Source: a virus
Length of the DNA: 23,268 bases
Reading direction: 5' to 3' (one strand)
IMG/VR virus record: IMGVR_UViG_3300035698_030596
Coordinates: 1 to 23,268 of that record
The translations under genes were made by a program, and so were the position numbers. Each line of letters opens with the position of its first letter. Positions within the stretch are counted from its first letter, which is position 1. The notes beneath the pieces are model-generated. The model ran no database searches, was not told where the DNA came from, and saw only the letters and a list, made by a program, of their open reading frames with translations. Below, piece by piece: positions 94 through 23,050 of this stretch.

Positions 94-510
94 TTATAGC
101 TTGAATCTCATGATGAAACTAATCATATGTTCATCATTTTCAATACTCTCTTTAATATCATCAATTGTTTCAATATACTTATTCACTGATCTTTCATTCT
201 CAAATCCCCATAATCTTACTTCAATATCTTCTGGTTCTAATACCAATAATAATCTTTGATAGATATCAAGAATCATAGGAAGAAATTTTGGATCTTTATC
301 ATATAAATTCTCCGCAGTTAAATTAGACATCTCAATAGATATTTTCCATAACCTACCACCTACCACGAATGAGTACCACCTACTACTTTTCATACACCCT
401 GTATACTCATCTTTAACAGCATAACCCTCATCACGCGCAATATTAAGAACCTGTTCAAGTTCCCATTGATCATATTCAACATTCTCATTAAATAATTTTA
501 TATACTTCAT
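94..510 (-). CDS. Unknown phage protein with capsid-targeting-like N-terminus
   Basis: A 138-residue soluble protein that I do not recognise. It begins MKYIKLFNEN, which fits the short N-terminal pattern shared by several unrelated proteins in this window (see findings). The rest is acidic and mixed alpha/beta, with no signal peptide, no membrane segment and no catalytic motif that I can name. Its ATG overlaps the TGA of the upstream TOPRIM gene by four bases (ATGA), so the two are probably translationally coupled and belong to the minus-strand unit that starts with the probable small terminase. If the N-terminal peptide is a packaging tag, this would be an internal head protein; that is inference. 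The gene is real on the evidence of its overlap, its length and its N-terminal motif; function unknown. Confidence 0.75.
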   Translation of the reverse strand: MKYIKLFNENVEYDQWELEQVLNIARDEGYAVKDEYTGCMKSSRWYSFVVGGRLWKISIEMSNLTAENLYDKDPKFLPMILDIYQRLLLVLEPEDIEVRLWGFENERSVNKYIETIDDIKESIENDEHMISFIMRFKL

Positions 511-6100: not shown

Positions 6101-6736
6101 ATGAAACATATTAGAAAATTTGAAAGTCACAGAGAATATCGTCAGAAGTACGATCTTATCCAAGAACTTGTAATGCAAAAAGGGAATGACTGGACTGTTA
6201 AAGCTAATATAGATATCCCACAGTCACTTATTAACGCATACGTTAAAAAGACAAAAGAAACTACTGGAAAGGATTTGAGAAAATTCTTTGGAGATGCTGA
6301 AATTGCACAGGATATGGTAAAATTTGTTACCACTAATTTCATGGATGTTGATAATATTCATGGTGGTGCATTAACAGGAGATGAAGAAACAAGCCCACAA
6401 CTAGATGCAACAGCTCCACAAGCACAGACACAAATGGAACCAGGTATGCAGGCTCAGCCACAAATGCAGGCTCAACCAGGTATGCAGGCTCAGCCACAAA
6501 TGCAGGCTCAGCCACAAATGCAGGCTCAGCCACAAATGCAGGCTCAGCCAGGACAGGCTCAACCACAAGTACAACCACAAGCGCAAGCACAAGGAGGTAT
6601 GATGCAAGGACAACCACAAGCTCAACCACAAGTACAGGTTCAAGCTCAAGCTCAAGCACAAGATTTTGAAGATATTGAAGATGAAGAAGAACTTGATTTA
6701 TCAGATGATGAAAACACAGAAGAGCTTCCACTTTAA
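6101..6736 (+). CDS. Q/A/P-repeat protein with capsid-targeting-like N-terminus
   Basis: A 211-residue protein in three parts. Residues 1-90 are a folded-looking helical domain that begins MKHIRKFESH, the clearest example of the shared N-terminal pattern. Residues about 105-185 are low complexity, built on MQAQPQ units and ending in looser QAQPQ repeats. The last 25 residues are strongly acidic (DFEDIEDEEEL and similar). There is no membrane segment or enzyme motif. A flexible Q/A/P linker with an acidic tail would suit an internal head, scaffold-like or tail-associated protein, but I do not recognise the family. It forms a single-gene unit between its own promoter-like box and a strong terminator. 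Gene certain, function unknown. Confidence 0.8.
   Translation: MKHIRKFESHREYRQKYDLIQELVMQKGNDWTVKANIDIPQSLINAYVKKTKETTGKDLRKFFGDAEIAQDMVKFVTTNFMDVDNIHGGALTGDEETSPQLDATAPQAQTQMEPGMQAQPQMQAQPGMQAQPQMQAQPQMQAQPQMQAQPGQAQPQVQPQAQAQGGMMQGQPQAQPQVQVQAQAQAQDFEDIEDEEELDLSDDENTEELPL
6446..6553 (+). repeat. Six 18-bp tandem repeats inside a coding gene
   Basis: Six head-to-tail 18-base units (ATGCAGGCTCAGCCACAA and near-identical forms) start at 6446, 6464, 6482, 6500, 6518 and 6536. Units differ mainly in the last codon (CAA, GGT or GGA) and one synonymous CAG/CAA change. The period is a multiple of three, so gain or loss of units keeps the MQAQPQ reading frame. Such near-identical repeats are prone to slippage, so copy number may vary between isolates. 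Confidence 0.97.
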
Positions 6737-15064: not shown

Positions 15065-15388
15065 ATGAAACATCTAAAACATTTTGAAAATAGTCGATTT
15101 ACTGAAAAAATAAAAGTCAGTAAATATGATGGATTACAACAACGCGCACTACCTACTAAAAGGAGATTAAGTGAAGAAGAAAATAAATTTATGCTTACTA
15201 ATATGTCAAATTATGCATGGTCAAATTTTATTGATGCAAATGGACATATAGGATTGGGTGGTGGTATGAGCGATAATGAGGAACAAGAACCTACTTTTAG
15301 GAGCTATATTACTGAAGATGATTTATTGAATGCAATGGTTGCTGACCGTTTTGAGAAGGCTAAACGTCGCGTTTGTGGTTCTTTTTAA
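15065..15388 (+). CDS. Small unknown protein with capsid-targeting-like N-terminus
   Basis: A 107-residue protein that begins MKHLKHFENSRF, almost the same as the MKHIRKFES start of the Q/A/P-repeat protein, while the rest of the two proteins is unrelated. After a basic segment (about 15-35) it has a helical part, a glycine stretch (IGLGGGMSD) and a charged C-terminus with a run of basic residues (FEKAKRRV). No recognised domain. Its last 29 bases overlap the convergent homing-endonuclease-like gene. The near-identity of the first nine residues with an otherwise different protein supports both the start codon and a shared targeting role. Function unknown. Confidence 0.75.
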   Translation: MKHLKHFENSRFTEKIKVSKYDGLQQRALPTKRRLSEEENKFMLTNMSNYAWSNFIDANGHIGLGGGMSDNEEQEPTFRSYITEDDLLNAMVADRFEKAKRRVCGSF

Positions 15389-17625: not shown

Positions 17626-17898
17626 TTATCTATATTTTATTACACCACCAATATTATTTGTAGTTGGTGCATTAAGACTCTTAGCTTGACCAAATAAAAA
17701 TTCAGTATATCTTTGAATTTGGTCTGGATGTTTAGTGAAATATTTTACTAAAGTATTTCTTTTTTCATCATCACTCATTTCATCCTGGTCATCCAAATTA
17801 TATAATTGAAATAATCTTAATAAGTTATTATCAACAAATCCTTCAGCATCTAATTGTGTTTTAGGATTATATCCTTCATAATCTTCAATGTATTCCAT
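17626..17898 (-). CDS. Small acidic unknown protein
   Basis: A 90-residue acidic, helical protein with no recognised motif. It begins MEYIEDYEGYNPKTQ and contains an Asp-rich turn (LDDQDEMSDDEKRN) followed by a helix-rich C-terminal part. Its ATG overlaps the stop of the upstream ART-like gene by one base (TAATG), so the two are coupled. By analogy with enzyme/partner pairs it might be an immunity, chaperone or regulator protein for the ART candidate, but that is only a positional guess. Confidence 0.65.
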   Translation of the reverse strand: MEYIEDYEGYNPKTQLDAEGFVDNNLLRLFQLYNLDDQDEMSDDEKRNTLVKYFTKHPDQIQRYTEFLFGQAKSLNAPTTNNIGGVIKYR

Positions 17899-18332
17899 TA
17901 TTGTTGTGATACTATTTTAGCCTCGGTTGTTGTATAAACCCATAATGGATCATTAACCACACTATTAGGCTCACCTTTCCAAAAGTTTTCTGCCATTAAT
18001 TTAATCTTATGCTCATCTTGAACTTCTTTAATGCTTGTTACCCATGATAAATCATGTTTATTGACTTCAGAAGTAGGTTCAACCGTATACAAATTATCGG
18101 TATTTCCACCAGCTTCGGATATTTTATCAGGATCATCACACATAAATAATGCTTCTCTATGTGATAATTTATTTTCAGGTCTATATTTTTCAACTATAGA
18201 AAAAGAATTTTCTTGTTCTTGATTATATCTATCACCACCTTTTAGTGTTTCACCTATTGGAAGTTCAATTCTACTACCATGATAGTATACTCTATCCGAG
18301 CTTTCAAAGTATTTGTGGAATTTTTTTATCAT
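17898..18332 (-). CDS. Putative ADP-ribosyltransferase (Arr-like) with capsid-targeting-like N-terminus
   Basis: A 144-residue protein. After the tag-like start MIKKFHKYFESS, residues 16-33 read YYHGSRIELPIGETLKGG, which matches the N-terminal motif of rifampin ADP-ribosyltransferases (YHGT...L..G..L.PG; H18 is the NAD-binding histidine). A central segment EALFMCDDPDKISEAGG (60-76) sits where Arr has its second strand and helix. LYTVEPTSEVNKHD (81-94) parallels the Arr VEP-x-G motif before its aspartate, FWKGEPNS (117-124) parallels its FPGNPTKSY segment, and PLWVYTTTEAKIV resembles its final strand. The length equals Arr (about 140). The family transfers ADP-ribose from NAD. A classical catalytic tyrosine is not obvious. 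T4 packages the ART Alt; a similar role is inference. The gene is coupled to the next one by TAATG. Confidence 0.5.
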   Translation of the reverse strand: MIKKFHKYFESSDRVYYHGSRIELPIGETLKGGDRYNQEQENSFSIVEKYRPENKLSHREALFMCDDPDKISEAGGNTDNLYTVEPTSEVNKHDLSWVTSIKEVQDEHKIKLMAENFWKGEPNSVVNDPLWVYTTTEAKIVSQQ

Positions 18333-18335
18333 AAA

Positions 18336-18346
18336 CTATATATTAA
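18336..18346 (-). promoter_or_regulatory. Phage promoter-like box TTAATATATAG
   Basis: On the minus strand TTAATATATAG ends three bases before the ART-like gene's ATG. Confidence 0.5.
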
Positions 18347-21967: not shown

Positions 21968-23050
21968 ATGGATATAAATATTATAATAAACGAGTTAGAT
22001 GAACTAAGAGATTATCTTTTGGATAATATCCAATATGATTCAGGATCTAATCAATTAATAATAGAAGAAGGTTTTAAACTTAATACTAAAGAATATCTTA
22101 CTAAGATTAGTAATGCGATTGGTGAAGATGTTGCCAAAAAACTTAATATCAGAGCATTACTTAGAAAACTTAACCAAGTTATTGTTCTCAAGAAAAGAAG
22201 CACACGTAGAGTAATACGAGAAACTCTTCAAAGTTACACAGACACATTAGGAGAAAGAATTACAAAAATTAATCAAAAGCATCCAGCCGAAGATTATCTT
22301 GATAGAGTTGATGGTGAAGAATCTATTTTACCACGTAGAAAATATGAAGATGAAAAATTCAAAATTCAAATTGAACTATTAAAACTACAAGAATGGGTAG
22401 TTGCTACTAAACAAAAAGTAGTAATTGTATTTGAAGGAAGAGATGCAGCAGGAAAAGGATCAACTATTAAAAGATTTGTTGAATATTTAAACCCTGCACA
22501 TTTTAGAGTTGTTGCATTAGGAATTCCAACAGAAGATGAAAAGAATAACTGGTTTGGTAGATATGAAAGACACCTCCCAAGCGAAGGAGAAATTGTTTTC
22601 TTTGATAGGTCTTGGTATAATAGAGCGGTTGTAGAACCAGCAATGGGATATTGTTCTGAAAAACACTATGAGCATTTTATGAAAAATGTTACAAAATGGG
22701 AAGAATCATTACAAGGAAAAGGATTTAGCGTATTTAAATTGTGGTTTTCCATATCTAAAGAAAAACAAAACGATAGATTTAATAGAAGATTAGCACATCC
22801 ATTAAAATATTGGAAATATTCACCTAATGATGCTAAAGCATTAGATGCCTTTGAAAGAATTGGACAATTAAAGAATAGAATGTTTACAGAAACATCAAAT
22901 GCTAATGTCCCATGGGTCATAATTAATTCAGAAGATAAAAAAGTTGCTAGATTAAATGCTATGCGATACATACTTGATTCAATCGATTATGAAGGGAAAG
23001 ATTCTAAATATACTAAATGGTATCCTGAAGTTGTTAATAAGCTAGATTAA
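21968..23050 (+). CDS. ppk2: Polyphosphate kinase 2 (PPK2 family)
   Basis: A 360-residue protein. The C-terminal two thirds are PPK2: Walker A GRDAAGKGS (157-165), Walker B FFDRSWYNR (211-219), and lid-region residues RFNRRLAHPLKYWKYSPND (270-288), with family-typical PWVIINSEDKKVARLN (315-330). PPK2 enzymes phosphorylate nucleotides with inorganic polyphosphate or the reverse; single-domain members of this type usually make ADP or ATP (or GTP) from polyphosphate. Residues 1-120 form a helical N-terminal extension that I do not recognise and that is longer than in typical single-domain enzymes. It starts two bases after the preceding gene, in the same unit. Catalytic motifs are intact. Nucleotide preference cannot be read from the sequence. 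Confidence 0.95.
   Translation: MDINIIINELDELRDYLLDNIQYDSGSNQLIIEEGFKLNTKEYLTKISNAIGEDVAKKLNIRALLRKLNQVIVLKKRSTRRVIRETLQSYTDTLGERITKINQKHPAEDYLDRVDGEESILPRRKYEDEKFKIQIELLKLQEWVVATKQKVVIVFEGRDAAGKGSTIKRFVEYLNPAHFRVVALGIPTEDEKNNWFGRYERHLPSEGEIVFFDRSWYNRAVVEPAMGYCSEKHYEHFMKNVTKWEESLQGKGFSVFKLWFSISKEKQNDRFNRRLAHPLKYWKYSPNDAKALDAFERIGQLKNRMFTETSNANVPWVIINSEDKKVARLNAMRYILDSIDYEGKDSKYTKWYPEVVNKLD

What the first reader, a model, noticed from the sequence alone, without database searches (positions are those of the whole stretch)
17626..18332. Possible capsid-borne Arr-like ADP-ribosyltransferase with a coupled small partner
The YYHGS...L..G..L.GG start, LYTVEP segment and FWKGEPNS segment follow the order of Arr rifampin ADP-ribosyltransferases, in a protein of Arr length, fused after a tag-like MIKKFHKYFES. 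T4 uses packaged Alt to modify host RNA polymerase, but Alt is a different ART type. A small acidic gene is coupled by TAATG and could be a regulator.
Basis: partly seen in the sequence, partly recalled or inferred. Interest (0 to 1): 0.75.

Follow-up and report, generated by a model that had tools for sequence, protein, structure and literature searches.

The report
Leader-tagged Arr-like ADP-ribosyltransferase in a megaphage
This giant-phage gene most likely makes a small NAD-using enzyme, a distant cousin of the bacterial rifampin-modifying enzyme Arr, fused to a short leader like the one T4 uses to load proteins into its head, so it may be a protein injected into the host at the start of infection; its target is unknown and nothing has been tested at the bench.

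Summary
A 144-aa ORF (17898-18332, minus) carries YYHGS, LYTVEP and FWKGEPNS in order and is coupled by TAATG to a 90-aa ORF.

The ADP-ribosyltransferase (ART) reading holds. Arr-ms is the only Pfam hit (E 0.0045, below cut-off). I found two real homologues: a 298.6-kb phage (L193) and Achromobacter phage Motura. The three-member profile matches the Arr profile at 95%, E 3.5e-8. A predicted model with an alignment (pLDDT 83) matches ART structures: BC2332, Arr, KptA. H18 is invariant. It is not a member of Arr proper: the ExDPN and PGNPTxSYR signatures are absent and both curated cut-offs are missed.

The capsid part is supported by context only. MIKKFHKYFES is one of a family of leaders on unrelated proteins in this megaphage clade (78 of 992 genes, 8.9 expected). 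Relatives encode gp23 and a gp21-type protease. In two relatives the same slot holds an unrelated gene with a leader close to T4's capsid-targeting sequence; in five it is empty. Motura's ART carries that phage's own shared leader.

The "partner" idea fails: the small gene is conserved in 20 or more relatives lacking the ART. Target and packaging remain unproven.

The parts
17898..18332 (-). Arr-like ADP-ribosyltransferase gene (P0001, 144 aa)
   Evidence: ORF; Arr-ms only Pfam hit; homologues L193 and Motura; AF2 with alignment pLDDT 83.4, pTM 0.74; ART structures as best fold matches
18303..18332 (-). N-terminal leader MIKKFHKYFE (residues 1-10), capsid-targeting-like
   Evidence: leader type on 78 of 992 clade genes, 8.9 expected; low pLDDT (mean 49 for residues 1-10) in the model; T4 ipII/ipIII MKTYQEFIAE
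18273..18287 (-). YYHGS, residues 16-20, with H18 = Arr H19
   Evidence: HG invariant in 19-sequence alignment and in the three family members
18123..18152 (-). ALFMCDDPDK, residues 61-70; F63 at the place of Arr Y49
   Evidence: alignments; Y in L193, F in Motura
18075..18092 (-). LYTVEP, residues 81-86, core strand
   Evidence: Y82, E85, P86 invariant
18042..18053 (-). D94-L-S-W97, region where the third catalytic residue would lie
   Evidence: W97 invariant, D94 is D in L193 and H in Motura; assignment is inference
17961..17984 (-). FWKGEPNS, residues 117-124, family-specific insertion
   Evidence: aligned to NYWAGVPY of L193
18337..18346 (-). TTAATATATA, phage promoter-like motif just upstream of the start codon
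   Evidence: within 30 nt of start: 20/72 leader-tagged and 66/802 other genes against 2/874 in shifted windows
17626..17898 (-). Conserved 90-aa gene (P0002), coupled by TAATG; neighbour, not a dedicated partner
   Evidence: homologues beside UvsX in >20 loci without an ART

Best explanation
The gene encodes a divergent, Arr-like ART of the His-type (HY-x) clade with a detachable N-terminal leader of about 10 residues. Made under a phage-type promoter, it would be drawn into the prohead core by the leader, trimmed by a gp21-type prohead protease and injected with the DNA. There it would take NAD+ and transfer ADP-ribose to a host molecule early in infection, as T4 Alt does but with an unrelated ART body. 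Shown by computation: the ORF, homology to two phage proteins, Arr as the nearest characterised sequence family, invariant H18, the shared leader, the variable slot, and gp23 and gp21-type protease in relatives. Inferred: catalysis, packaging, cleavage, injection. The target is unknown; in one phage the ART lies beside an ADP-ribosylglycohydrolase, which favours a reversible macromolecular modification over drug inactivation.
For: Arr-ms is the only Pfam hit for P0001 (17.6 bits), for L193 (17.1 bits, tied with one chance hit) and for Motura (12.5 bits). The profile of the three, with no Arr in it, matches the Arr profile at 95%, E 3.5e-8, and its best hit among 177,635 PDB sequences is ARR-2, E 0.0037. 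A model with alignment A5 has pLDDT 83.4; best matches are BC2332 Z 10.7, Arr Z 7.3/7.0/6.9 and KptA Z 5.1, all ARTs (BC2332-like is SCOP d.166.1.6, PMC3000352). Leader enrichment. Same slot: empty in L229, L232, L233, L234 and L238; unrelated gene with leader MIKTYLQFINES or MIKSYLEFINES in L230 and L241; T4 ipIII is MKTYQEFIAE. Motura's ART shares MxIQAxxRLxA with seven neighbouring genes. In L193's phage 8 of 58 genes share an F..W[LI]..E leader, 0.43 expected. gp23 in 10 of 10 records and S77 protease in 10 of 19. L193 ART beside ADP_ribosyl_GH, E 2.5e-67, and 5 kb from gp23.
Against: Without an alignment the model failed (pLDDT 29), and the good model used Arr sequences, so it is not an independent proof. 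L193 was found with a motif pattern that presupposes YHG[ST] and YxVEP. The Y49 equivalent is F63 and the third catalytic residue is not fixed (D94 is H in Motura). The leader ends YFE, not the strict L/I-X-E. Window-phage gp23 and protease are not on this fragment. L193's own leader (MVSSFKQWE) fits its phage's type only loosely. The gene is an orphan in its clade (0 of 41 related records).
Confidence: 0.62

Rival explanations
1. It is an active Arr-like ART made inside the infected cell but not packaged; the leader is a general feature of this phage's proteins with another role, such as a membrane, nucleus-like compartment or complex-recruitment signal.
For: Leaders sit on many proteins of unknown place, including genes near replication genes; no virion data exist; the leader cleavage motif is imperfect.
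Against: Leader resembles T4's capsid-targeting sequence in layout, most clearly in the slot-mates MIKTYLQFINES and MIKSYLEFINES; relatives have the gp23 and gp21-type machinery; L193 lies by gp23.
Confidence: 0.2
2. It is a small-molecule ADP-ribosyltransferase, a degenerate Arr that inactivates a rifamycin-like antibiotic or a diffusible defence compound for the benefit of the infected host, as proposed for Arr of Microbacterium, Gordonia and PBC5 phages.
For: Arr is the nearest named family; published proposal for phage Arr proteins (PMC9503650).
Against: Arr signature segments ExDPN and PGNPTxSYR are absent; NCBIfam rifampin_ARR cut-off 130 against 15.7 bits; leader and ADP-ribosylglycohydrolase neighbour of L193 fit a macromolecular target better.
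Confidence: 0.1
3. ART-fold protein without transferase activity (a binding or inhibitor protein).
For: F at the Y49 place and uncertain third residue.
Against: H18, G19, Y82 and E85 are kept across three remote phages; third residues vary in active His-type ARTs (own knowledge).
Confidence: 0.06
4. The similarity to Arr is convergent motif similarity and the protein has another fold.
For: Single-sequence score is weak and motif-driven; single-sequence model failed.
Against: Profile-profile E 3.5e-8, Arr top-ranked in an unbiased PDB sequence search, Motura found through fold and confirmed by sequence profile E 1e-7.
Confidence: 0.02

Closest known systems
Rifampin ADP-ribosyltransferase Arr (PF12120, NF033144; PDB 2HW2, 9IBA)
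   Same: HG[ST] start with catalytic-type His, L..G..L, Y.VEP strand, ART fold, similar length; best sequence-level match
   Different: lacks ExDPN, PGNPTxSYR and the W-A-x-E-L-A helix; carries two insertions of its own and an N-terminal leader; F instead of Y49
BC2332 (PDB 2AUA), SCOP d.166.1.6
   Same: best structural match of the model, Z 10.7 over 130 residues; a predicted ART of unknown function
   Different: no sequence match found; cellular Bacillus protein; target unknown
T4 Alt (head-packaged ART)
   Same: proposed life style: ART with a short N-terminal propeptide, packaged, injected, acting on the host early (PMC9503650, PMC9026906)
   Different: Alt belongs to the R-S-E clade (PMC9503650), is much larger and modifies RNA polymerase alpha; here a small His-type ART, target unknown
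T4 internal proteins IPI/IPII/IPIII with capsid-targeting sequence
   Same: short leader shared by unrelated bodies, variable cargo genes, gp21-type protease in the clade
   Different: cargo here is a predicted enzyme; leader ends YFE rather than IAE; packaging not shown
Arr-family ARTs of Microbacterium, Gordonia and PBC5 phages (PMC9503650)
   Same: phage-borne Arr-related ARTs
   Different: untagged as far as examined, small genomes, proposed to act on small molecules

Membership tests
ADP-ribosyltransferase superfamily, His-type (HY-x) clade | ART fold | tested here: met
   model pLDDT 83.4; best PDB matches are ARTs; prediction used ART relatives in the alignment
ADP-ribosyltransferase superfamily, His-type (HY-x) clade | first catalytic-type residue His in [YF]HG[ST] | tested here: met
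   H18 invariant in all homologues and in Arr
ADP-ribosyltransferase superfamily, His-type (HY-x) clade | second position Tyr | tested here: inconclusive
   F63 in P0001, F in Motura, Y in L193
ADP-ribosyltransferase superfamily, His-type (HY-x) clade | NAD turnover | not testable with these tools
   needs purified protein
Arr rifampin ADP-ribosyltransferase | curated family score (Pfam 25, NCBIfam 130 bits) | tested here: not met
   17.6 and 15.7 bits
Arr rifampin ADP-ribosyltransferase | ExDPN with catalytic Asp (D84) and PGNPTxSYR signature | tested here: not met
   invariant in seven Arr proteins, absent in P0001, L193 and Motura
Arr rifampin ADP-ribosyltransferase | modification of rifampin | not testable with these tools
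   biochemical assay needed
T4-type capsid-targeted internal protein | short N-terminal leader shared by unrelated proteins of the phage | tested here: met
   78 of 992 genes, 8.9 expected; unrelated slot-mates with the leader
T4-type capsid-targeted internal protein | gp21-type prohead protease and gp23 capsid in the phage | tested here: inconclusive
   present in relatives; not on this 23-kb fragment
T4-type capsid-targeted internal protein | L/I-X-E cleavage site at the leader end | tested here: not met
   P0001 has Y-F-E-S, close but not L/I-X-E; slot-mates have I-N-E
T4-type capsid-targeted internal protein | presence in the virion | not testable with these tools
   needs virion proteomics
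T4 Alt family | R-S-E catalytic signature, Alt-type ART | tested here: inconclusive
   only Arr-ms appears in Pfam at E<=1; no direct Alt comparison was run
Toxin-antitoxin pair (ART plus P0002) | the two genes co-occur | tested here: not met
   P0002 family without any ART in over 20 loci

The most novel reading that the evidence does not exclude
A small Arr-like ART family has been recruited independently in unrelated jumbo and mega phages as a head-packaged, injected effector, each time behind that phage's own genome-wide leader: MIKKFHKYFE here, an F..W[LI]..E type in L193's phage, MxIQAxxRLxA in Motura, perhaps MKSFNEWMEE in L173. Arr-related enzymes would then be macromolecule-modifying takeover or counter-defence enzymes, not only drug-resistance enzymes, and shared leaders would let one read a phage's cargo list from sequence.
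Probability: 0.45. Interest if true: 0.75.

Novelty: new variant of a known kind. Interest (0 to 1): 0.55.

Why it matters
Head-packaged ARTs are known from T4 Alt and predicted in many phages, and Arr relatives in phages have been read as drug-resistance genes. A His-type, Arr-like ART on a capsid-targeting-like leader joins the two and predicts a new injected host-modifying enzyme in huge phages. The leader itself gives a testable way to list the injected cargo of uncultured megaphages, and Motura is an isolate in which the idea can be checked.

Tried and rejected
Direct searches with P0001 alone found nothing in phages, viral contigs or genome contigs, nor in 41 related virus records with P0001 or Arr-ms. 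Arr-ms across 395 Bacteroidota genomes gave 34 true Arr carriers but no bridging family; the best weak matches (16.6 bits) show that 15-17 bits alone is not proof at genome scale. Single-sequence AF2 failed. MAFFT with only two Arr sequences misaligned P0001, so phage relatives were added. Aeromonas 'minor capsid' tblastn hits were read and carry no ART motif: chance. L025:13916-14440, second in the Arr HMM list, has no ART motif. Other pattern scans and an A4 scan gave only L193 again. P0002 as antitoxin or regulator was rejected by its distribution. Horizontal gain is not visible in base composition (ART 31.0% GC, window 30.5%). T4-type late TATAAATA is not enriched before leader genes. PHROGs has no family for P0001.

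Full report
WHAT IS THERE. On the minus strand, 17898-18332 encodes 144 aa (P0001) and 17626-17898 encodes 90 aa (P0002); stop and start overlap as TAATG. P0001 reads MIKKFHKYFE | SSDRV YYHGS ... ALFMCDDPDK ... LYTVEP ... DLSW ... FWKGEPNS ... YTTTEAKIV. The window is a 23,268-base virus record. Its UvsX is 83% identical to that of an uncultured 634,780-bp phage and 53-79% to that of 43 further virus loci (one more, L045, is 36%), so it is a piece of a megaphage of that clade.

IS IT AN ART. Among Pfam families only Arr-ms appears for P0001 (E 0.0045, 17.6 bits, residues 16-91, cut-off 25), and in NCBIfam only rifampin_ARR (E 0.01). An HMM of 77 genuine Arr proteins ranks P0001 first among 3,648 ORFs of the window and its relatives and above 20,000 shuffles of P0001. 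The score is modest and comes mostly from the YHGS end; in 395 Bacteroidota genomes chance matches reach 16.6 bits, so this alone would not settle it.

HOMOLOGUES. P0001 by itself finds nothing. A codon-degenerate scan for YHG[ST]...Y.VEP gave 12 in-frame proteins. One, L193 in a 298,603-bp phage, is a true relative: 54 bits, 32% identity, and the similarity runs beyond the search motifs (EKYRP.N, GG..D, N[YF]W.G.P, AKI[VI]). Its Pfam hits are the same part of Arr-ms (17.1 bits) and one chance family at the same E. The pattern presupposed two motifs, so that agreement is partly built in. A model of P0001 then led to Achromobacter phage Motura in the viral fold library (E 1.9e-8), and the two-member profile A4 finds the Motura gene in its 221-kb genome at E 1e-7. 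The three share Y17, H18, G19, L24, P25, G27, E48, R51, G75, D79, Y82, E85, P86, W97, G120, Y133 and A138.

LINK TO ARR. The three-member profile, which holds no Arr, has ARR-2 as its best hit among 177,635 PDB sequences (E 0.0037). Arr profile against family profile gives 95% probability, E 3.5e-8. Folded alone, P0001 gives no model (pLDDT 29). With a 19-row alignment of the relatives, other phage Arr-like proteins and true Arr it gives pLDDT 83.4 and pTM 0.74, with residues 1-10 at low confidence and the insertions absent from Arr mostly at good confidence. Best structures are BC2332 (Z 10.7, 130 residues), Arr (7.3, 7.0, 6.9), KptA (5.1) and then other ARTs. BC2332-like proteins are a family of the ADP-ribosylation superfamily in SCOP (PMC3000352). 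Because Arr sequences were in the alignment, the model agrees with the ART reading but is not independent of it.

NOT ARR PROPER. Seven Arr proteins share ExDPN and PGNPTxSYR without exception; the three phage proteins have neither. The place of Arr Y49 is F63 (Y in L193, F in Motura). The third catalytic residue is not assigned: D94 is D in L193 and H in Motura. I therefore file it as an Arr-like ART of the His-type clade, not as a rifampin ART. The residue names H19, Y49 and D84 of Arr are from my own knowledge of the Arr structure paper.

THE LEADER. In 992 non-overlapping ORFs of the window and 44 related loci, 78 start with a leader of the type MK.[IL]K.F.E; 8.9 are expected from shuffled N-termini. 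The proteins behind it are unrelated. T4 ipII and ipIII begin MKTYQEFIAE. In T4 a 10-residue leader is enough for packaging; residues 4 and 7 matter for targeting, 8 and 10 for processing, and gp21 cuts after L/I-X-E (PMC9026906, PMC10229621). P0001 has F5, Y8, F9 and E10: similar layout, not the strict motif. Relatives carry a gp23-type capsid (10 of 10 records tested) and an S77 (gp21-type) protease (10 of 19), close to each other in G019, G030 and G040.

THE SLOT. The ART lies between P0002 and a divergent phosphoesterase. In L229, L232, L233, L234 and L238 no gene of appreciable size lies between them. In L230 and L241 a 99-aa gene of another family, starting MIKTYLQFINES or MIKSYLEFINES, sits there, and in L241 it overlaps P0002 by one base, as the ART does. 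So the slot takes leader-bearing cargo of different kinds. P0002 itself is the constant member, found next to UvsX in over 20 loci without an ART, and distant homologues carry the leader themselves. It is not an ART-specific regulator.

OTHER PHAGES. Motura's ART starts MEIQAAVRLQAS, and seven other genes in the 14 kb around it start with the same kind of leader (MxIQAxxRLxA). In L193's phage 8 of 58 genes in 57 kb share an F..W[LI]..E leader (0.43 expected); the ART begins MVSSFKQWE, a looser fit. L173, an Arr-ms protein above the Pfam cut-off, can start at MKSFNEWMEE in the tail-gene region of a 458,813-bp phage, but few other genes there share it. Different leaders in front of related ARTs suggest independent recruitment to the same delivery route; this is inference.

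EXPRESSION. TTAATATATA lies 4-13 nt upstream of the ART start codon. Clade-wide it occurs within 30 nt of 20 of 72 leader genes and 66 of 802 others, against 2 of 874 in windows shifted upstream. The divergent phosphoesterase has the window's only host-type TTTG-N-TAnnTTTG site, a match expected about once by chance; such sites precede 0 of 74 leader genes and 39 of 831 others. This fits phage-controlled expression of the ART but does not time it.

MECHANISM AND RIVALS. The best-supported account is an injected ART: leader-guided packaging, trimming, injection, NAD-dependent modification of a host molecule. In L193's phage the ART gene overlaps by four bases a convergent ADP-ribosylglycohydrolase (PF03747, E 2.5e-67), 5 kb from gp23; ART-glycohydrolase pairs in Aeromonas phages are read as macromolecular modifiers (PMC9503650). 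That argues against simple drug inactivation. The window phage and most relatives lack such a gene on the held records. The main rival is an ART that is never packaged. The target is open; RNA polymerase is only an analogy to Alt.

NOVELTY. Packaged phage ARTs and phage Arr relatives are both known (PMC9503650). What I did not find described in the held library is an Arr-like ART on a capsid-targeting-like leader. Verdict: new variant of a known kind.

Noticed in passing
window 18337-18346 and genome-wide in L002-L045: TTAATATATA a few bases upstream of start codons is a promoter-like signal across this megaphage clade (86 of 874 genes within 30 nt against 2 of 874 in shifted windows).
   Followed up: partly
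L226 (Motura 136000-150000): Eight of 23 genes share an N-terminal MxIQAxxRLxA, a possible capsid-targeting leader of a new type.
   Followed up: partly
L219, L193 (298.6-kb phage): Run of genes with MxF..W[LI]..E leaders (8 of 58, 0.43 expected) just downstream of the gp23 capsid gene.
   Followed up: partly
L230:2200-2499 and L241:2202-2501: 99-aa proteins with leaders MIKTYLQFINES / MIKSYLEFINES, close to T4 ipIII, in the ART slot; function unknown.
   Followed up: partly
window 94-510, 6101-6736, 15065-15388: Further leader-bearing proteins in the window (MKYIKLFNEN, MKHIRKFES, MKHLKHFENS), candidates for the same route.
   Followed up: no
window 21968-23050: PPK2 polyphosphate kinase gene (Pfam E 2.7e-78), unusual cargo for a phage.
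   Followed up: no
window 6101-6736: Leader-tagged protein with a long QAQPQM repeat tract.
   Followed up: no
L173:1498-1920 and L184/L188: Other phage Arr-like ARTs: one with a possible MKSFNEWMEE leader, one inside a 1,171-aa open frame, probably a polyvalent protein.
   Followed up: partly
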